Origin: a virus
DNA length: 21,748 bases
Virus record (IMG/VR): IMGVR_UViG_3300049489_000148
Location: 1-21,748 of that record
Reading direction: 5' to 3' (one strand)
Position 1 is the first letter of the stretch. Each line of letters begins with the position of its first letter. Under the pieces are notes generated by a model. That model was not told the origin of the DNA, ran no database searches, and saw only the letters and a program-made list of their open reading frames with translations. A program made the position numbers and the translations under genes. Shown here in pieces: positions 4,538 through 21,748 of the stretch.

Positions 4538-4946
4538 GGCCACCTACTTCTTGGACATAGCGGAAGCCGTGTCCAAACGGGCAACATGCCCCAGGCTTTC
4601 CGTGGGTGCGGTGTTCGTCGGACAAAGCGGGAACATCCTGACCACTGGATACAACGGTGCCCCCCGGAACATGGGTCACTGTCTGGACGTTGGGTGTGAA
4701 ATAGTCCACAACCACTGCAAGCGTGCCCTACACGCAGAAAGGAACGGGATTATCTGGGCAGCACGGGAAGGGATCAGCCTAGTAGGCAGCATCCTTTACC
4801 TGACCCATGAACCTTGTGCGGACTGCGTGCTGCACATTCACCAAGCCGGGGTCCAAAGTGTGCTGTATCGCCACGAGTACTACAACGAGTTAGCCACTAG
4901 GTTCGCCATGGAAGCGGGCCTTATGGTATGGAAGGAAAACCAATGA
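4518..4946 (+). CDS. dCMP deaminase
   Basis: Zinc-dependent deoxycytidylate deaminase converting dCMP to dUMP, the ThyX substrate. The catalytic HAE is H72-A73-E74 and the zinc-binding PCADC is residues 99-103. The N-terminal CPRLSVGAV and TGYNGAPRNMGHC blocks are typical of phage dCMP deaminases. At 142 aa it has a normal length. GTG 4518 has GGAAGGAG about 7 bases upstream and overlaps the end of thyX by 20 bases. The stop overlaps the next start (ATGA). A role in allosteric dCTP/dTTP control is known for the family but cannot be judged here. Confidence 0.93.
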   Translation: MSPRPSKATYFLDIAEAVSKRATCPRLSVGAVFVGQSGNILTTGYNGAPRNMGHCLDVGCEIVHNHCKRALHAERNGIIWAAREGISLVGSILYLTHEPCADCVLHIHQAGVQSVLYRHEYYNELATRFAMEAGLMVWKENQ

Positions 4947-5407
4947 CCAACATGCAAGACAGCGGTGAGCGCCTGACCTTTTCCACTGGTGCCCAGCGGG
5001 AACCTGGCAAGGAACTCCGTCGCTTTGACCTCATTCCCCACAAGCCTCTCCTGGACTTGGCCTACTGGTACGGCATGGGAGCAAAGAAGTACAGTGACCG
5101 CAACTGGCAGAAGGGTCTGCCTCTGTCCTCTTTCCTGAACAGCGCCATGGCCCACCTCACCAAGCTCAACGAAGGGTGGAAAGACGAGGACCACGCCAGC
5201 GCCGTAAGTTGGAACATGTTCGGCTTTGTCTGGACGGCTAACGAGGTTGCCGAGGGACGGTTGCCTAGTAGCCTGGATGACGTGGGATGGCTGTGCGTCA
5301 TAGACAAACCCATGTCCCCCGAGGTGCTGGACACCTACCAAAACCCTGACAAGCTACCTTCCTCAGCACTAGCCAACTGCCGGTGCAAGTTGTGCGTGGA
5401 CGACTAA
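4943..5407 (+). CDS. dATP/dGTP diphosphohydrolase-like (DUF5664, MazG-type)
   Basis: RRFDLIPHKPLLDLA (about residues 26-40), GAKKYSDRNWQKG (46-58), H71 and the acidic DEDHASAVSWN block (81-91) match the phage DUF5664 family, which is annotated as a dATP/dGTP diphosphohydrolase of MazG type. It would release pyrophosphate from dNTPs and shape the pool. ATG 4943 is preferred over 4928 because GGAAGG precedes it and it forms an ATGA overlap with the deaminase. The C-terminus ends in Cys-rich CRCKLC. The substrate is inferred from the family name, not proven. Confidence 0.8.
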   Translation: MTNMQDSGERLTFSTGAQREPGKELRRFDLIPHKPLLDLAYWYGMGAKKYSDRNWQKGLPLSSFLNSAMAHLTKLNEGWKDEDHASAVSWNMFGFVWTANEVAEGRLPSSLDDVGWLCVIDKPMSPEVLDTYQNPDKLPSSALANCRCKLCVDD

Positions 5408-10975: not shown

Positions 10976-11272
10976 GTGGCAAGCAAGAAAGAGTTTGAAA
11001 CTCTGGACGACTACACCCAAGAGGAACTGGACGAGTTCATTAGGGAGACCAGAGTAGCCCGTGCCCAGAAGGTGGGCAAAGCACCTCCCAAGGAGCGGAA
11101 GAAGAAAGAGACCAAGCCCAAGACCAAGACCACGGAAGACCCAGTGAAGTTGGCAAAGCTCCTGGACATTTCCGTGGAAGAAGCAAAAGAACTGATTGCC
11201 CTAAAGAACGATAGCAGTGACGAGGAGGACTCCCCCAATGGCGAAGACGGTAGTGAAGGACTTGCCGATTGA
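10976..11272 (+). CDS. Hypothetical highly charged protein, 98 aa
   Basis: GTG 10976 has TGGAGG (10961-10966) 9 bases upstream. The product alternates acidic and basic runs. Residues 38-55 are Lys-rich (PPKERKKKETKPKTK), then a small helical unit (DPVKLAKLLDISVEEAKELIALK) and an acidic tail. It looks largely disordered with one UBA- or HTH-like helical patch. Translation may be controlled by the hairpin upstream. It overlaps the methyltransferase start by 35 bases. The function is unknown. Confidence 0.6.
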   Translation: MASKKEFETLDDYTQEELDEFIRETRVARAQKVGKAPPKERKKKETKPKTKTTEDPVKLAKLLDISVEEAKELIALKNDSSDEEDSPNGEDGSEGLAD

Positions 11273-12632
11273 AGACGTGGTCGAAGGGACCAGGTTTCGT
11301 GAGGACTTGGGTGACATCAATGAACTTATGGAGAGTATTAAGACATACGGTATCTTGCAGCCTTTGGTGGTGGACAGTGACAACCGCCTTATTGCTGGCG
11401 GCCGTCGTCTCACTGCTGCTAGGAGTGCAGGACTTTCCCATGTCCCCTGTGTCGTTCATCGTGGGTCTATTGACGACGGTGACCTTCGTGAACTGGAGTT
11501 GGTGGAGAATATCCATCGAAAGCAGTTCGCTTGGCACGAGGAGGTGTTACTGGTGCGGGAAATCCATCGTCTCAAGACGGGCGAGGCGCTGAAGCGTGGT
11601 GAGAAGTGGAGCCTGGAAAAGACCAAGGATTTGTTTGACAAGAGCCGGAGCGCAGTATCCAAAGACATCCTCCTGGCCGACGCCCTTTCCACATTCCCTG
11701 AAATCAAGTCCTGCAAGGACCGGAACGAAGCCCAGATCAAAGTCCGGGACATCTCCATCGCCGTTGCTGCCAAGGTCCGGAATGAGAAGGCCGAAGAAGC
11801 GGGACTTAAGGAAGCCAAGGAAAACCTGAAGAAACAGGTCGAGCGTTCCCTTGCCGTAGACGAAGCTCGGGCTGTGCTTGCACCACTACAAAAGCCCATG
11901 GCCGCCCTGATCCAGTGGCCTATCTCCCAGGTCCAAGATTGGACTAAGCACCGCATGATTAACGGTGACTTCTTTGCTGAGGTTGCCAAGATCGTGGACG
12001 GGACCTTTGAGTTCATCAACTGCGATCCGCCCTACGGTATCGACGTGGGCACCCAGAAGAAGAACGTCAAGAGCCAGAACATTGACTTTGACGATAGCGC
12101 CAAGTGGTACATGGAGAACCTCCCCAAGATCGTCTCAGAGACCTACCGGGTAGCCAAGGACGGAACGTGGATGGTCTTCTGGTTTGCCATGAAGCACTAC
12201 GGCACTACCAAGCTGGCCCTGGAGAAAGCCGGGTGGTCTGTGAACCCCACGCCTGCCATCTGGGTCAAGCCCAACGGTGGAAGCCAAGCACCGGCTACGA
12301 ACTTGGGAAGTTTCTACGAGACTTTCTTCTACTGCCAGAAGGGCAAGCCTGTGCTTGGAAAGAGCGGCGCTCCCAACGTGTTCCACTTTGGCCAGCCAAA
12401 GTCCAAGTTCCACCAAACGCAGAAGCCTGTCGCCTTGATGACTTCCATCTTGGAGACCTTTACTATGGGGCCTGTTCGTGTCCTCGATGCCTTCATGGGG
12501 TCCGGCTCCACTGCCATCGCAGCTTGCTTACGCAAGTGTCGTTACACTGGCTTTGAACTGAACGAGGACATGCTCAACCTGGCCAGGGTATTCGCTGAGG
12601 ACTACATCATTCGAGGTGTCACCGATGAGTAA
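11238..12632 (+). CDS. ParB-like domain fused to DNA methyltransferase
   Basis: The N-terminal 100 residues form a ParB/Srx-type domain: GGRRLTAARSAGL (54-66) and ENIHRKQFAWHEE (90-102). A helical middle follows, with an HTH-like SRSAVSKDILLADAL at 136-150. The C-terminal half is a beta-class amino-methyltransferase, with DPPYG (263-267) before the SAM-binding DAFMGSGST (417-425). It probably methylates adenine N6 or cytosine N4 at a target perhaps chosen by the ParB part. At 464 aa this matches phage ParB-methylase fusions. ATG 11238 is chosen for GAGGAGG 10 bases upstream; GTG 11217 is unlikely. No restriction enzyme is seen nearby, suggesting protection or regulation. Confidence 0.88.
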   Translation: MAKTVVKDLPIEDVVEGTRFREDLGDINELMESIKTYGILQPLVVDSDNRLIAGGRRLTAARSAGLSHVPCVVHRGSIDDGDLRELELVENIHRKQFAWHEEVLLVREIHRLKTGEALKRGEKWSLEKTKDLFDKSRSAVSKDILLADALSTFPEIKSCKDRNEAQIKVRDISIAVAAKVRNEKAEEAGLKEAKENLKKQVERSLAVDEARAVLAPLQKPMAALIQWPISQVQDWTKHRMINGDFFAEVAKIVDGTFEFINCDPPYGIDVGTQKKNVKSQNIDFDDSAKWYMENLPKIVSETYRVAKDGTWMVFWFAMKHYGTTKLALEKAGWSVNPTPAIWVKPNGGSQAPATNLGSFYETFFYCQKGKPVLGKSGAPNVFHFGQPKSKFHQTQKPVALMTSILETFTMGPVRVLDAFMGSGSTAIAACLRKCRYTGFELNEDMLNLARVFAEDYIIRGVTDE

Positions 12633-12888
12633 CAAAGAAGAAATGGCCAAGACCCACAAGCAACACGAAGTCGAAGCCATCCAGAAGGCCCACCAAGTCG
12701 GGCTATCCTACGAGGAAATCCGCAAAGCCTTTGACAACGTTCCATACGGAGTCATAGCTAGTATCCTGGAGAATCGCACACGCCCGTGTGCCTTCTGCCA
12801 ACACCCATTCTACCCAGCCAAGGAAACCACCCGCTTCGGCTCTCGTGACTGTCTTTCCGCCGCCATGCGTGAGCTAGGATCGAGCTAA
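12625..12888 (+). CDS. Small HTH plus Cys-motif protein, 87 aa
   Basis: ATG 12625 has GAGGTG 6 bases upstream and lies inside the end of the methyltransferase gene; GTG 12616 is an alternative. The N-terminal half has a helix-turn-helix-like stretch (VGLSYEEIRKAFDNVPYGVIASIL). The C-terminal half has PCAFC, then C about 18 residues on (SRDC), recalling the protein at 3417-3626. A DNA-binding role is likely. It stands 33 bases before the polymerase gene. Confidence 0.65.
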   Translation: MSNKEEMAKTHKQHEVEAIQKAHQVGLSYEEIRKAFDNVPYGVIASILENRTRPCAFCQHPFYPAKETTRFGSRDCLSAAMRELGSS

Positions 12889-12921
12889 GTCCAACCCCTT
12901 CACTCTTATAGGAGCAAAGAC

Positions 12922-15429
12922 ATGACGTCGGAAACCTTCAAGATCAACCTTGGGACGGTGTCCCTTGACGAACTGGACAAGATCCCAGACCACGGAAACC
13001 CAGCATCGCCCATCTGGGTGGTGTTTCCCACAGCAGACCAAAAGGCATTGGAATACAAGAGCATCTTCAAGTCCAGTTATGAGTCCTGGGTTGCAAGTGC
13101 CCTAGACGAAGCTGGGCTGCACAAGGGGGACTATTATGTCTGCTCCGCGGTGGAAGAACCAGTTGCCAACTACATCCACTACAATCGCTTCCGCTTGTCC
13201 AACAAGCAAGCCGAGGACTTCGCCAAGCGTGTCCGTGCGCATAAGCCGCACCTGGTTATCCTCGTGGGGGAAGCTAGTCTCCAAGCCTTCACTGGTCAAA
13301 GTGGTATTGACAAGTGGCGTGGATCTTTTCTTTATAGCCAACTGCTTGATACAGAAGTTCTCCCAATCTATAACGGCTTTCGTATCAGCGGTGAGCAGGA
13401 GTTCCGGTTTCTGACACAGATGGACCTGAACAAAATCAAGATCCGTGGCGTCCGCTATCAGGAACCTAAGCGGCGTTACATCATAGACCCTTCCTTCCGG
13501 GAGTGCGTTGATTACCTTGAGTGGCTGGGGGACACCGAGGGGGAGCGTGGTCAGGAGCAGAAGATCTTCACCACAGACATTGAAACCACTGGCCTACATA
13601 AGACGGCCCAGTTGTCCTGTATCGGCTTTTCGGATGCACCTTATAGTGCCTTCGTGATCCCCTTTCTGGACAACGCCAAGCAGGACCGTCACCGTTGGTC
13701 CCACGCTCAGGACGTGCACCTCTACAAGCTCCTGAACCGTGCCATGTCCAACGAGAAAACAATCAAGGTCTACCAGAACGCCATGTTCGACATGACCTTC
13801 TTGTATGATCGCTGCAAGATCATGTGCCGTGGACGCACCTGGGACACCATGGTCATGCACCACTTGCTCTACCCAGACTTCAAGAAAAACCTAGGCTTGC
13901 TTACGTCCCTCTATACCCTTGACCCGTACTACAAGGACGAAGGCAAAATCTGGTCCAACGCTTCCATTAGTGACGAACAGTTCTGGACGTACAATGCCAA
14001 GGACGCAGACGTCACCCTTCGGATCTACAACGAACTGATCCGTCGCCTAAAGGCCCACGGTGCCTACAACAAAGCCTTCCATCTGTCCACCCTCCACACC
14101 GTCATCTTTGAAGCAAGTCTCCGTGGCCTTCCAGTTGACGTGGAACTACGGAACCGCTTGGCTAAGGAAATGCGTATCGAGCAAGAGGGCGTCCGGGAAC
14201 AGATCAAGACCGTGGTCGGTTGGGACATTAACCCCGGCTCCTCCACCCAAGTCAAGCGTTTCCTCTACGACGAAATGGAAGTGCCTGAGAAGCTGGATCG
14301 CAAGACCAAGAGCGTCACGGCCAATGAAGTGGCCCTCCGTGATATCAAGAAAGAGACCCAAGGCAAGGCGGCAACCGAGCGTAACAAAACTATCATCACC
14401 TTCATCGACAAACTCCTCGATTATCGTGACATTGACAAGCTGTGTGGAACCTACTATGAGTGCGAAATCTCCGAGGACGGTCGTTACCGTACCACTATTA
14501 CCCTTGCTGGTCCGGACACTGGTCGTTTTGCTTCAAGTAAGTTTTTTGACGGCACAGGTAATAACGCTCAGAACCTGCCTAAGCGTGCTAAGAAGTTTAT
14601 CATACCTGGTGCAAGTGACGAGGTTCTTGTCAACGCTGACTTGTCCCAAGCTGAGGCACGAGTCGTCGCCTACGAAAGCCAAGACCAAGGACTAATCAAC
14701 CTATTCCTTTCCGGTCTGGACTACCACAGCGCCAACGCCATGAACATCTGGGGGTATAAGAGTGTCTACGACGTACCGGATGATAAACGCTACCTTGCCA
14801 AGCGGGGAGGTCATGCGTGTAATTACGTCATTAGCGACTACGGACTTGCCATTTCTCTTGGCATACCCCTCCAGGTGGCCAAAGAGTTTCGCCGTCAGTA
14901 CTTCGCGACGTACCCCGGCCTGGTTGCGTGGCAAAGGTCCATCGAAGCGAAAGTCCGTGCGGACCGGACGCTCACTACTCCTATGGGACGAAAGCGAGTC
15001 TACCTTGGACGAGTTGATGATACCCTTGTCCGAAGTGCCACAGCCTTTATCCCCCAATCTACCGTTGCCGACAGGCTCAATGAAAGCCTACTTAGCTTCC
15101 TAAAAGTTTGGCCTAGTGCTAAGCTCCTACTCCAATGCCACGACTCCCTTCTGTTCACAGTACCAAAACATACCGTTGACTCCTTCATCCTGACCCTGAA
15201 GCACCACATGGAACAGCCCATCGTATCCAAAGGACGAAGCTACACCATCCCCGCTGACTTTGAAGTAGGCTACAACTACGGAGCCCTTATCCGCTACCTT
15301 ACACCTGAGCAGGAGAATGAAGTCAAAGCGTTCATTAAGAACGGATCTACTACCCCTGAAATCTCCATGGCCCTTCGTCTAAACAAGGATGCTGTGGAAC
15401 ATGTCCGCAAGGGCGAGACGTGGCGTTAA
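12922..15429 (+). CDS. Family A DNA polymerase with UDG-like N-terminus and HTH-like tail
   Basis: Replicative DNA polymerase. Residues 25-175 resemble a family 4-type uracil-DNA glycosylase fold (PHLVILVGEASLQAFTG, KWRGS), but the usual GExPG and HPS motifs are replaced (VFPTAD, YNGF), so catalysis is doubtful. The 3'-5' exonuclease has D219/E221, N286/D290 and Y357/D361. The polymerase has TGRF (533-536), motif A NADLSQAEAR (571-580, D573), motif B around K627-Y640 and motif C CHDS (739-742, H740/D741). Residues 790-835 form an extra tail with an HTH-like pattern. AGGAG (12910-12914) precedes ATG 12922. The dyad element lies within the tail codons. Confidence 0.93.
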   Translation: MTSETFKINLGTVSLDELDKIPDHGNPASPIWVVFPTADQKALEYKSIFKSSYESWVASALDEAGLHKGDYYVCSAVEEPVANYIHYNRFRLSNKQAEDFAKRVRAHKPHLVILVGEASLQAFTGQSGIDKWRGSFLYSQLLDTEVLPIYNGFRISGEQEFRFLTQMDLNKIKIRGVRYQEPKRRYIIDPSFRECVDYLEWLGDTEGERGQEQKIFTTDIETTGLHKTAQLSCIGFSDAPYSAFVIPFLDNAKQDRHRWSHAQDVHLYKLLNRAMSNEKTIKVYQNAMFDMTFLYDRCKIMCRGRTWDTMVMHHLLYPDFKKNLGLLTSLYTLDPYYKDEGKIWSNASISDEQFWTYNAKDADVTLRIYNELIRRLKAHGAYNKAFHLSTLHTVIFEASLRGLPVDVELRNRLAKEMRIEQEGVREQIKTVVGWDINPGSSTQVKRFLYDEMEVPEKLDRKTKSVTANEVALRDIKKETQGKAATERNKTIITFIDKLLDYRDIDKLCGTYYECEISEDGRYRTTITLAGPDTGRFASSKFFDGTGNNAQNLPKRAKKFIIPGASDEVLVNADLSQAEARVVAYESQDQGLINLFLSGLDYHSANAMNIWGYKSVYDVPDDKRYLAKRGGHACNYVISDYGLAISLGIPLQVAKEFRRQYFATYPGLVAWQRSIEAKVRADRTLTTPMGRKRVYLGRVDDTLVRSATAFIPQSTVADRLNESLLSFLKVWPSAKLLLQCHDSLLFTVPKHTVDSFILTLKHHMEQPIVSKGRSYTIPADFEVGYNYGALIRYLTPEQENEVKAFIKNGSTTPEISMALRLNKDAVEHVRKGETWR
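15329..15343. repeat. CGTTC-N5-GAACG dyad inside the polymerase gene
   Basis: CGTTC, ATTAA, GAACG. Including the following GATC it matches the copy at 1716-1734 at 18 of 19 bases, although one copy is coding and the other intergenic. GTCAA replaces the upstream GTATA. Confidence 0.45.
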
Positions 15430-15452
15430 AGCTGTAGCAGAAAGCGGGACGT

Positions 15453-16724
15453 GTGTCAAACGAAGACGAAGAAGAAGCCAGTGCTACAGAGGCTCCACCT
15501 AGGGAACCTGAGACTAAGAAGGTCCTCAAGGCTCCCAAGAAAAGGGTATGTAAGAACTGGCTGACAACCTATAGGCAGTACACAGACAACACAGAAAGCC
15601 CGGACAGTTTCCACACCTTCACTGGACTATGGACCCTGGCCGGTGCTATGCAACGGAAGTGCTGGTTTAACTACGGCATGGCAAAGGTTTTTCCCAACCT
15701 TTACATCGTCCTAGTTGCTCCCCCCGGAGTGGCACGTAAGACAAGCGCCATGAGAATTGGTGCCCAGATGCTTAAGGACCTAGACATGCCGATGGTTTCC
15801 AGCACCATCACACGGGAAGCCCTTATCCAACGGGCAGCAAACAGTCCCCAGGACAAACTCTATGACGGACACAAGCTAATCCGTCACCACTCCTTGAACC
15901 TGGCCAGCGACGAGTTTGCCGTGTTCCTCGGAGAAAACAACTTCCCCATGATCGGGATGCTTACGGACTGGTACGATTGTGCTAATCCGTGGAGTTATGA
16001 GACCAAGGGGAGCGGCACGCAAACCATCAACGGCATCTGGTTCAACATGATTGCCTGCTCCACGAGCCAGTGGCTAGGACAAGCCCTTCCCAGTAATGCG
16101 GGAACAGGCGGCTTCACAAGTCGGATCATCTTTGTCGTAGAGAACCGGAAAAGAAAGGACGTGGCAATTCCCTACCTCACAGACCTACAGCGGGACCAAC
16201 GTAAGATGCTTATGCTGGACCTTCTATGGATCAATGAGAACATCTGGGGAGAGTTTAACTTCACTCCCGATGGACGTAAGTACTTCGAGGAGATTTACAA
16301 GAAGATCAGTTCCCAGCCCCGTTTCTCTAATAGCCCACATATGGCCGGCTATTGGGAGCGGAAGCCGGGACACATCATCAAGCTCTCCATGCCTATCCAC
16401 ATTTCCACCAAGTCCACCAAGCAGATCGACGAGGAGGACTTAGAACTGGCTACCCTGTTGCTAGAGGAACGAGAGTATCGCATGGAGGACGCCTACTCTA
16501 CCCTCGGAGCCAATCGCCTAGCACCTCTCCAGCATCAGGTAATGGAAGTCCTACGACAACTTGGTCAGGTAGACTTTGGACAGCTCAACGAGTTCTTCTG
16601 GAGGGATATGTCTGAGAGCGAACTTACGGCTGTTATGTCCAGCTTGGTCACGATGGGCTTCTGTCGTGAGAGCCACACCTCCAAAGGCATCACATACATA
16701 ATGACGAAAGGAAAGAAGAAGTGA
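15453..16724 (+). CDS. DUF3987-like helicase/primase-type ATPase
   Basis: The SPDSFHTFTGLWTLAGAM block (49-66), PNLYIVLVAP (81-90) and APPGVARKTS (89-98) match phage DUF3987-like ATPases found next to polymerases and thought to be replicative helicases. The P-loop is atypical: an Arg precedes the Lys and the second Gly is missing (PPGVARKT instead of PPGxGKT). Acidic NLASDEF (149-155) gives a Walker B-like D153/E154. The C-terminus has a winged-helix-like stretch (LRQLGQVDFGQLNEFF). The N-terminal 30 residues are charged and disordered. GTG 15453 has only a weak upstream GGGAC. The stop overlaps the next GTG. Confidence 0.75.
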   Translation: MSNEDEEEASATEAPPREPETKKVLKAPKKRVCKNWLTTYRQYTDNTESPDSFHTFTGLWTLAGAMQRKCWFNYGMAKVFPNLYIVLVAPPGVARKTSAMRIGAQMLKDLDMPMVSSTITREALIQRAANSPQDKLYDGHKLIRHHSLNLASDEFAVFLGENNFPMIGMLTDWYDCANPWSYETKGSGTQTINGIWFNMIACSTSQWLGQALPSNAGTGGFTSRIIFVVENRKRKDVAIPYLTDLQRDQRKMLMLDLLWINENIWGEFNFTPDGRKYFEEIYKKISSQPRFSNSPHMAGYWERKPGHIIKLSMPIHISTKSTKQIDEEDLELATLLLEEREYRMEDAYSTLGANRLAPLQHQVMEVLRQLGQVDFGQLNEFFWRDMSESELTAVMSSLVTMGFCRESHTSKGITYIMTKGKKK

Positions 16725-18135: not shown

Positions 18136-21100
18136 TTAGAACTCTTCCTTTTGCTCACCCTTAGTATGAGCATCCACCCAGAAGCTCTGGTAGATAAGCC
18201 ACCGAAGCCTAGCCAACTCTGGGTCCTTGGACTTGGCGATCTGCTTAAGCACCTTTTCCTCGCTGGGAACCTCCAATCCCAAGAGTTTGTTCTGTACTAA
18301 TCGAGCCATGGTGGGCGTGCTTTGTAGGTGCCGAATGTCCGTGAAGTCCAGCACCTCGTTGGTGGAAATCTTTCTGGCGATAGTCAAAGCCCGTTCGCTG
18401 AGACGTTCCCTGTAAGCCTTGGTCATGTTGGTGTCCACGACGTGCCTGCGCCAAGCCTCGTCCTTGATCCCGTGCATACCAGCCAGGGCCGTGCGAATGG
18501 AAACCAAGGGACTATCCACTTTGCTGATAAGCTGCCCGCCTTGGTCGTAGATCTTACCCTTGTTCAGATTAAGCTCCACCGCTTCTGCGATGTGCTTGAC
18601 TGTGCTAGGAGACACAGCCTCAACGGTCTTAAGTGCCGTGAACAAGGGCTGGCTAAGATGCGGACTGGTTTCCGTCAGAGCCTTGTAAGTTCCGCTAACC
18701 ATCTGTGCCCCAATGGAGAACGCTGGGAGGGTGAAGAACTCCAAGATGTCTTTGGTGTTCCCGGGATACATCAAGTTACCAAACTCGTTCATGTCAATAC
18801 CGAGGCCGTTACCAACCAGACCGCCGTCAAGGCTATTGGCTGCGAAGCTACCCCAGGCATTAGGCATGGACTTCTTGATGGCCCCCCTCAGCCTGAGAAG
18901 CACATCGTCCCCTGTGACCCCATTATACCAGGAAATCCCAAGTCCGATAAACGGGATACCGGACACGCCCCCGAACAAGCTAGTAGCACCCAGCATCAAG
19001 ATAAGGGGCGCGGTGTCCTTATGGTACAGAGACTTAGTCTTAGGCAAGTCTGAGCCTGGAGTCCAGTCCTCATTGGGGATTTCAATAACTGCACCCTTAA
19101 ACAACCTGCTATTTTGGATCACCTTATCCAAGGCGTTCCACATGAAGTTCTTAAAGGTGAAGAATTGGTTTCCAAGTTCCCCACTAATCTCAGGCAGGGC
19201 GGGGCGATTGCTAGACTTAAGATCCAGCGTGGTCCTAGCATGTTCTCCAGCAAAGGCAATAGCCGCTGCGTCGTCAAGCTGAGGCATACTAGTTTTCACG
19301 GTCTTGTAGAAGGACAGGAACGTGACCATCTGCCGCCAGTCGTCCGAACGCTGGCCAATGAAGTCCAGCTTAGACTGCAAGGCGTTGAAGAAAGCGTGCC
19401 TACGTGTAGCACCTCCCTCGTTAGTGGCAAAGAAGTCTTTAGTCTGTCCCCAGATAGCCTGCTTACCCTTACCTTCTGAGAACCTGAGGGGCTTAACGTA
19501 GCCCAGTTCTTGAGCAACGACAAGAGCCTTGAAGGCGTCGCTATCCCTGTCCGTCCCCATGATAATGTCCAGACTTTCCTTAATCGCCTCAGCGGTGAAC
19601 TTGGTAGCCAACTTAGCACTAGAGAGACCGGACTTCTGAACCAAGGACCCGGCATGGGTAGCAAGCTCAGGAAAGGTAACAGTCCAGAAGTGGTTAGCGT
19701 CTAGTGTAACCTTCTTGAAGCTGCTATACCCCAACTTGAGGCCGGTGGTAATGTTCCGCATCTGGGCACCGAACACCCGCAGGTTGGGCATGTTAGGGGC
19801 GATGTGGTGGAACAAGTTATCTAGACCTTCTTCCCACTTACTGGCCACATTCAGCGTGTTGTTGTAAACCGCACCAATTTCTTGCTTCTGCTCAAGGGTC
19901 CACTCCCCATTGTCACGAAGATCCTGGACCTTGTTCTTGAACTCAATGCCGTGAGTAAAGTTGCTAACCATCTGCTGGAACTTAAGGACCTCGTCCAGGT
20001 AGCTTTGATCTTCCCACCCAGAGACGTTCTTCCGCTCAGCAAAGTACTTCTGAATCCCAGACTTCCCGCGAAGTTGGTCCAGCAAGCCCATCACCTCGTC
20101 CTCGTTCAACTCCGGCGCACCCTCACTGGCCTGCATGAGGTGAAGCAAGTCCTTCAAATCACTGGCCTTAAGGTCAAGGTTACTAGCGTACGAGAAAGCA
20201 GGAGGTTCAGCCTTCCAGACCACGTTCGCCTCAGGGTACTTCTCCTGCAAGGCAGCCACCTTTTCCTCGGCTTCCTTGACAGAAAAGGCACCAATGGTTT
20301 CCATGGACTTCTTCGTCTCTGGGTTCATGGCATGGACACGATACCCACCCAAGCGAACGTGCGGATAGTACCCAGGCTTATATTGGGCACTAATAGCGGC
20401 CAGCATCTTCTTGGTTTCTACGCTGCCTTCGTCCATACCCAGAAGTTCCTCCGTGGTGTAACCTTGTCCCCGATACTTAGACAGGTCACTATCCCCGCGG
20501 ATCACGTCCTCTGTCTTGGCCAGCTTCAATGCGACGGAGTTGGTCTGCACAACCCGAGCCACGTTCAAGTACGTTTTGGCTACCTTAGCGTCCACACCCT
20601 TTGCCTCTAGTTCCGCCTCGGTGTAGTACTTAAACTCTTTCTCACCTGCGATAAGAAGTTCCTTGACGGACTTGTTATACTCAGGATTGATAGAGTCAAA
20701 CTTACCTTTCCAGAACTGAACAGTATCCTTCCAGAACTTGGGAAGTGCTTCTTGGGTCCCCTGGTCATGTATAAGACCTTCCGGCCCGCTAATATCCCGA
20801 TACTTGTCAGCAAGGATCTTGTCGTGCATTTCATCGGCAGCGGCCTTAGTAAGGTTCATGTGGGGCTCAGCAGCACGACTCTGGAACACTCCCCCCTCGT
20901 CTACGAAACCCACACGAGCCGTGGCCCGACTGTTGATACCCGCGAACTTACGGAAGGCGTAGTTGTGGAAGAAGCTAGCCGTGCCGTTCACGCTAGTCTT
21001 GGCCATGTTCCAGACCTTGTCCCGCATGTCCCGCTTGGCGCTATAGATCACGTCGGCAGCGTCAAACCACAGATTAGGCTCACTCTGGTCAAAGTGTTGG

Positions 21101-21748
21101 ATGGGGAAACTATCCGCCCACTTTAGTCCAGGCACCCGAGCCATGGTCCTAGTCTTGACAGCTGCATCAAAGATGTTGGTAAGCTCCAGCCAGGCAACAC
21201 CCCGCATGGGGACTTTGTATTGGCCGTCGGACAACAGATAGTTAAAGGCGAACTTCTGCGCACCTTTGTATTGATTGCTAGACGCACGGGACAACAGCAG
21301 CGTATTATCCCGGATGGCCTTAGCGTTCAACAGGTGATTAGGGCTCTCCAAGTTAGTCCCCACAGGCTTCTTGAGAAAGCCGTAGTTCTTGTAGCTCGGG
21401 TGCTGACGAACAACATCGCCGGCCTTCTGGACATACTGGACCAGGCCGAACATGTTCTTGTAGTTCTCAGGCAGACCTGCAATCGCTTCGTCTGCGATGC
21501 TATAAATAGTGGGAGCAAGTTCCTTCAAGCCCTGTGGATTACGCCAATAGGCTTGGAAAGCACGGACAGCGTTCTCACCAACGTCCTGTGCGTAGGCGTT
21601 TTGCGGATCGTAGTGACCAAGCCAGTACGCCAAGCCGGTCTGCTCAGCAGCACTAACGTCACTAATGATCCGCTCAAGGACGTTGTTGAACACTTCGTCC
21701 CCAAGGGTCATGGCGTGGAGAACTTCATGGGCAAGAGTGTCTAGCGTC
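18136..21748 (-). CDS. Giant polyvalent protein with HExxH metallopeptidase motif (5' end outside window)
   Basis: The frame stays open to the right edge, so the first Met at 21711 is internal: no ribosome binding site precedes it and 12 more in-frame codons are visible. 1203 residues are seen. The first visible ones contain AHEVLHAMT (HExxH at 21715-21729), then about 50 residues on [17 protein letters not shown] with E58 as the likely third zinc ligand, then [17 protein letters not shown], the pattern of zincin-type peptidases in phage polyvalent proteins. A long helical middle follows. Near visible residues 910-940 there is a hydrophobic segment ([25 protein letters not shown]). The C-terminus resembles the LPD38 polyvalent region. 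Such proteins are often virion-injected. It may cleave host or phage proteins. Confidence 0.8.

What the first reader, a model, noticed from the sequence alone, without database searches (positions are those of the whole stretch)
21712..21748. HExxH motif in codons upstream of the first Met at the window edge
The minus frame remains open past Met 21711. The extra codons encode TLAHEVLHA, giving a zincin active site followed by an E-containing [11 protein letters not shown] and the [10 protein letters not shown] block. A start placed at 21711 would remove the catalytic motif and mis-describe the protein as a plain structural one.
Basis: partly seen in the sequence, partly recalled or inferred. 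Interest (0 to 1): 0.65.

Follow-up and report, generated by a model that had tools for sequence, protein, structure and literature searches.

The report
Cut-off phage ejection protein, zincin motif
The right end of this phage contig cuts through the gene of a giant protein of a known kind that phages probably carry in the particle and inject with their DNA, and the first codons left at the edge hold a metal-protease motif (HEVLH) that many relatives have at the matching place, so a gene start drawn at the first Met would wrongly leave it out.

Summary
Observation confirmed. The minus frame is open from 18136 to the contig end (21748; the held record is exactly the window). Residues 1-14 are [14 protein letters not shown], with HEVLH at 21729-21715. 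Met13 (21711) has no real Shine-Dalgarno sequence. The C-terminal part belongs to the phage PLxRFG giant-protein family (NCBIfam NF032893, E 1.3e-12 but below its curated cut-off; own family HMM E 3.4e-12). In distant relatives found through polymerase and primase, giant proteins carry HExxH in 15 of 23 and 10 of 12 cases (0.6 and 0.5 expected), upstream of the PLxRFG site wherever that site could be placed. The helix resembles a widespread phage zincin clade (TLxHExxHAxT). Profiles of that clade hit three internal virion or ejection proteins of solved phages and, weakly, lethal factor and N4 virion RNA polymerase. So this is a 5'-truncated, probably injected 'polyvalent' protein with a zincin-like domain, a theme published in 2017. 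Not shown: a complete zinc site. New member of a known kind.

The parts
18136..21748 (-). partial gene (5' end missing) of a giant PLxRFG-type phage protein; 1203 codons present
   Evidence: open frame to the contig end; family match
21706..21747 (-). residues 1-14 [14 protein letters not shown]: zincin active-site helix; HEVLH = 21715-21729
   Evidence: clade match
21709..21711 (-). Met13, first Met in the frame; not the likely start
   Evidence: no Shine-Dalgarno; relatives have about 290-1800 residues before HExxH
21574..21576 (-).
   Evidence: one of three MAFFT modes
21487..21489 (-). E87 (DEAIAG), alternative third-ligand candidate, unproven
   Evidence: alignment A3
20335..20370 (-). 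[12 protein letters not shown], equivalent of the PLxRFG motif
18364..20406 (-). PLxRFG family region, residues 448-1128
   Evidence: NF032893 E 1.3e-12, own HMM E 3.4e-12, hhalign 96-97%
11217..16724 (+). convergent replication genes: ParB-methyltransferase, DNA polymerase A, DUF3987 primase; same order beside the giant gene in relatives

Best explanation
The open frame is the 3' part of a gene for a giant phage protein of the PLxRFG / polyvalent kind. It is most likely made late, packed inside the head and ejected into the host with the DNA. It holds a zincin domain of the lethal-factor-like type, whose active-site helix (HEVLH) lies at the contig edge. The zincin most likely cuts proteins: the giant protein itself during assembly or after ejection, or host proteins. 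Shown: open frame, motif, family membership of the C-terminal part, and the same place and order of HExxH and PLxRFG region in relatives. Inferred: packaging and ejection (from solved relatives of the domain), proteolysis (from the motif and published predictions), and a complete zinc site.
For: Open frame. PLxRFG family match over about 670 residues. HExxH in 15/23 and 10/12 giants of relatives against 0.6 and 0.5 expected, always before the PLxRFG site. Clade signature A and T after HExxH, conserved in 91% and 96%. Clade profile hits internal virion protein 9sfn_G (1.2e-13), ejection protein gp48 8vb2 (3.3e-6) and gp10 23sg (2.7e-5). Relative L144 matches Pseudomonas phage internal virion / ejectosome proteins. 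Giant gene closes the structural operon in complete relatives. Published precedent: PMC5512222, PMC12633501.
Against: The EFxAE motif of the clade is missing and the third ligand is not placed consistently. hmmsearch alone gives no significant match of the window helix to the clade (4.9 bits). NF032893 is below its curated cut-off. The closest relative by primase, L096, has a giant without HExxH. The PLxRFG C-terminal profile finds no solved virion protein, so ejection is inferred through the zincin domain and gene position. Structure models were uninformative.
Confidence: 0.72

Rival explanations
1. Zincin remnant: the domain is kept as part of the virion protein but its zinc site is degenerate (third ligand lost), so it is not a peptidase in this phage.
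For: EFxAE is absent; two of three MAFFT modes put Asn50/Gln54 where the clade has Glu. Some relatives lack HExxH altogether.
Against: The HExxH helix, including A12 and T14, is intact, and E58 or E87 could serve.
Confidence: 0.2
2. The domain is a peptidoglycan-cutting enzyme of the ejectosome rather than a protease; this is how the corresponding domain in solved relatives has been labelled.
For: The PhiM1 paper calls gp48 residues 268-528 endolysin/exotransglycosidase-like from BLASTP and DALI (PMC11440229); matching proteins of phikF77 and vB_PaeP_130_113 are annotated 'internal virion protein with endolysin domain' (that label may refer to another part of those proteins).
Against: The same PhiM1 stretch (379-495) matches the zincin profile with HExxH and EF in register, and the further, weak hits are lethal factor and N4 virion RNA polymerase.
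Confidence: 0.12
3. Chance HExxH in an unrelated giant protein; the true gene starts near 21711.
For: HExxH alone occurs in 3.5% of shuffles.
Against: Strict pattern 0.075%, HExxHAxT 0.02%; matching place in relatives; no ribosome site at 21711.
Confidence: 0.05

Closest known systems
PLxRFG domain-containing phage proteins (NCBIfam NF032893), e.g. Microcystis phage Mel-JY34 XAI96480
   Same: C-terminal region homologous; HExxH about 405 residues before PLxRFG in Mel-JY34, 455 in the window; gene convergent to polymerase and primase
   Different: window sequence very diverged (47 bits against a cut-off of 100; motif YYPHVRLGG instead of PLxRFG); N-terminal part missing
Zincin-like MPTase domains of phage polyvalent proteins (Iyer et al. 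2017, PMC5512222)
   Same: HExxH helix in a giant phage protein next to large-polyvalent-type domains
   Different: second-helix Glu not identifiable with confidence; the strands before the helix lie outside the contig
Internal virion / ejection proteins: 9sfn chain G, PhiM1 gp48 (8vb2), gp10 (23sg)
   Same: the zincin clade that the window helix resembles matches these chains, with HExxH and the first Glu kept
   Different: no direct sequence match between the window protein and these chains; C-terminal part not matched
N4 virion RNA polymerase, C1 domain (PMC12633501)
   Same: HExxH domain in a giant injected virion protein
   Different: no RNA polymerase domain detected in the part of the window protein that is present; profile match only E 0.18

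Membership tests
PLxRFG family (NF032893) | profile match above the curated cut-off (100 bits) | tested here: not met
   47 bits, E 1.3e-12: homologous, but not a member by the curators' rule
PLxRFG family (NF032893) | homology over the C-terminal region with family giants of relatives | tested here: met
   residues 448-1128, E 3.4e-12, hhalign 96-97%
PLxRFG family (NF032893) | PLxRFG motif | tested here: inconclusive
   equivalent site reads YYPHVRLGG; several relatives also deviate from the consensus
Zincin-like MPTase of polyvalent proteins | HExxH in a helix with hydrophobic context | tested here: met
   [10 protein letters not shown]
Zincin-like MPTase of polyvalent proteins | third-ligand Glu in the second helix | tested here: inconclusive
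   E58, E87 or none, depending on alignment
Zincin-like MPTase of polyvalent proteins | three-stranded sheet and helix before HExxH | not testable with these tools
   outside the contig
Phage ejection / internal virion protein | present in the virion and transferred with DNA | not testable with these tools
   inferred from solved relatives of the domain and gene position in relatives

The most novel reading that the evidence does not exclude
A lethal-factor-like zincin is a common built-in part of phage ejection proteins, including the domain of PhiM1 gp48 that its paper calls endolysin-like and its counterparts in phiKMV-like phages, so that podophage ejectosomes carry a protease into the host envelope or cytoplasm; the window protein is a diverged example.
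Probability: 0.4. Interest if true: 0.6.

Novelty: new member of a known kind. Interest (0 to 1): 0.33.

Why it matters
It corrects an edge-of-contig annotation error (start at 21711) and places an otherwise orphan gene in the class of giant, probably injected phage proteins. The related evidence also suggests that a domain called endolysin-like in a solved ejection protein is a zincin, which can be checked in deposited structures. What the zincins of injected phage proteins cut is an open question.

Tried and rejected
Direct searches with the window protein found nothing in Pfam, PDB, phage records or IMG/VR. SusD-like_3 (E 0.067) and PEP_NF038132 (E 0.013) are noise. The MW202674.1 hit (E 6) has no HExxH and was rejected. 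AlphaFold on a relative's zincin region (A2) and on window residues 1-700 (A3) gave mean pLDDT 42 and 39, so no fold search was run. The PLxRFG C-terminal profile against PDB gave noise, as did A3. The closest relative by primase (L096) was hoped to give the missing N-terminus but its giant has no HExxH. No tRNA genes in the window.

Full report
Observation. The minus frame that ends at 18136 stays open to the last base of the window. Residues 1-14 are [14 protein letters not shown]; Met13 is the ATG at 21711. That ATG has only a 3-base match to the anti-Shine-Dalgarno sequence, while 10 of 16 other starts checked have 4-8 bases. HExxH occurs in 3.5% of shuffles of the protein, the strict zincin pattern in 0.075%, HExxHAxT in 0.02%.

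What the protein is. Pfam, PDB and phage tblastn find nothing with the window sequence itself. NCBIfam NF032893 (PLxRFG domain-containing protein) matches residues 459-1128 with E 1.3e-12, but with 47 bits against a cut-off of 100. I collected relatives of the phage by its DNA polymerase and primase. An HMM built from their giant proteins matches window residues 448-1128 (envelope 434-1128; E 3.4e-12 at Z = 10000; hhalign probability 96-97%).

Place of the motif. In relatives the giant gene lies convergent to polymerase and primase and, in complete genomes, closes the structural operon. Of giants of at least 1200 residues, 15 of 23 in the first set carry HExxH (0.6 expected from shuffles) and 10 of 12 in the second (0.5 expected); a few contigs are in both sets. 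The motif precedes the PLxRFG-equivalent site by 321-1080 residues wherever that site could be placed, and by 455 in the window. So the window motif is at the expected place, and several hundred N-terminal residues are probably missing. L096, the closest relative by primase (38%), has a giant without HExxH, so the motif is common but not universal.

The zincin clades. One clade reads HEFGH ... E[FY]xAE, the other HELVHAAT ... YGLTNxxEFVAE; their profiles match each other (94%). The window helix has that clade's Ala and Thr after HExxH (91% and 96% conserved). By hhalign residues 2-34 match that clade with 65% probability (E 6e-5 for a single comparison); by hmmsearch the match is not significant (4.9 bits). 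The clade assignment of the window is therefore suggestive, not proven.

The zinc site. Both Glu of EFxAE occur in 57 of 57 clade members (the second was required by the extraction pattern, the first was not). In three solved virion proteins only the first is kept, which points to the first as the ligand. The window has no EFxAE. MAFFT E-INS-i puts E58 on the ligand column, L-INS-i and G-INS-i put Asn50 there, and the alignment with the other clade puts E87 there. AlphaFold models are too poor to decide. A complete zinc site is possible but not shown.

Function. Profiles of the second clade match an internal virion protein (9sfn_G, 1.2e-13), the PhiM1 tetrameric ejection protein gp48 (8vb2, 3.3e-6) and gp10 of 23sg (2.7e-5), then weakly lethal factor and N4 virion RNA polymerase. 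The giant of relative L144 matches, in its zincin region, internal virion or ejectosome proteins of Pseudomonas phages. Iyer et al. 2017 (PMC5512222) predicted that such peptidases process the polyvalent protein itself before or after packaging or after injection, or cut host proteins; the N4 paper names HExxH in domain C1 (PMC12633501). The best reading is an injected virion protein with a zincin domain; its substrate is unknown.

Side finding. The PhiM1 paper calls residues 268-528 of the tetrameric ejection protein endolysin/exotransglycosidase-like (PMC11440229). Residues 379-495 of the same chain match the zincin profile with HExxH and the EF motif in register. I could not establish with the library held whether this has been noted elsewhere.

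Noticed in passing
PDB 8vb2 chain A, residues 379-495: Zincin-profile match (HExxH and EF motif) inside a domain that its paper calls endolysin/exotransglycosidase-like.
   Followed up: partly
window 4928-5404: dATP/dGTP diphosphohydrolase N-terminal domain (PF18909, E 1e-14) beside ThyX and a dCMP deaminase; such enzymes can occur in phages with altered DNA bases (own knowledge), but this was not tested.
   Followed up: no
window 12922-15429: Family A DNA polymerase with a weak uracil-DNA-glycosylase-like match at its N-terminus (residues 59-150, E 0.046, below cut-off).
   Followed up: no
window 11217-12632: ParB N-terminal domain fused to an N6/N4 DNA methyltransferase; the same gene type sits beside the polymerase in relatives.
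   Followed up: no
L096 9532-15843: Closest relative by primase (38%) has a 2104-aa giant protein without HExxH, so the zincin has been lost or replaced in some relatives.
   Followed up: no
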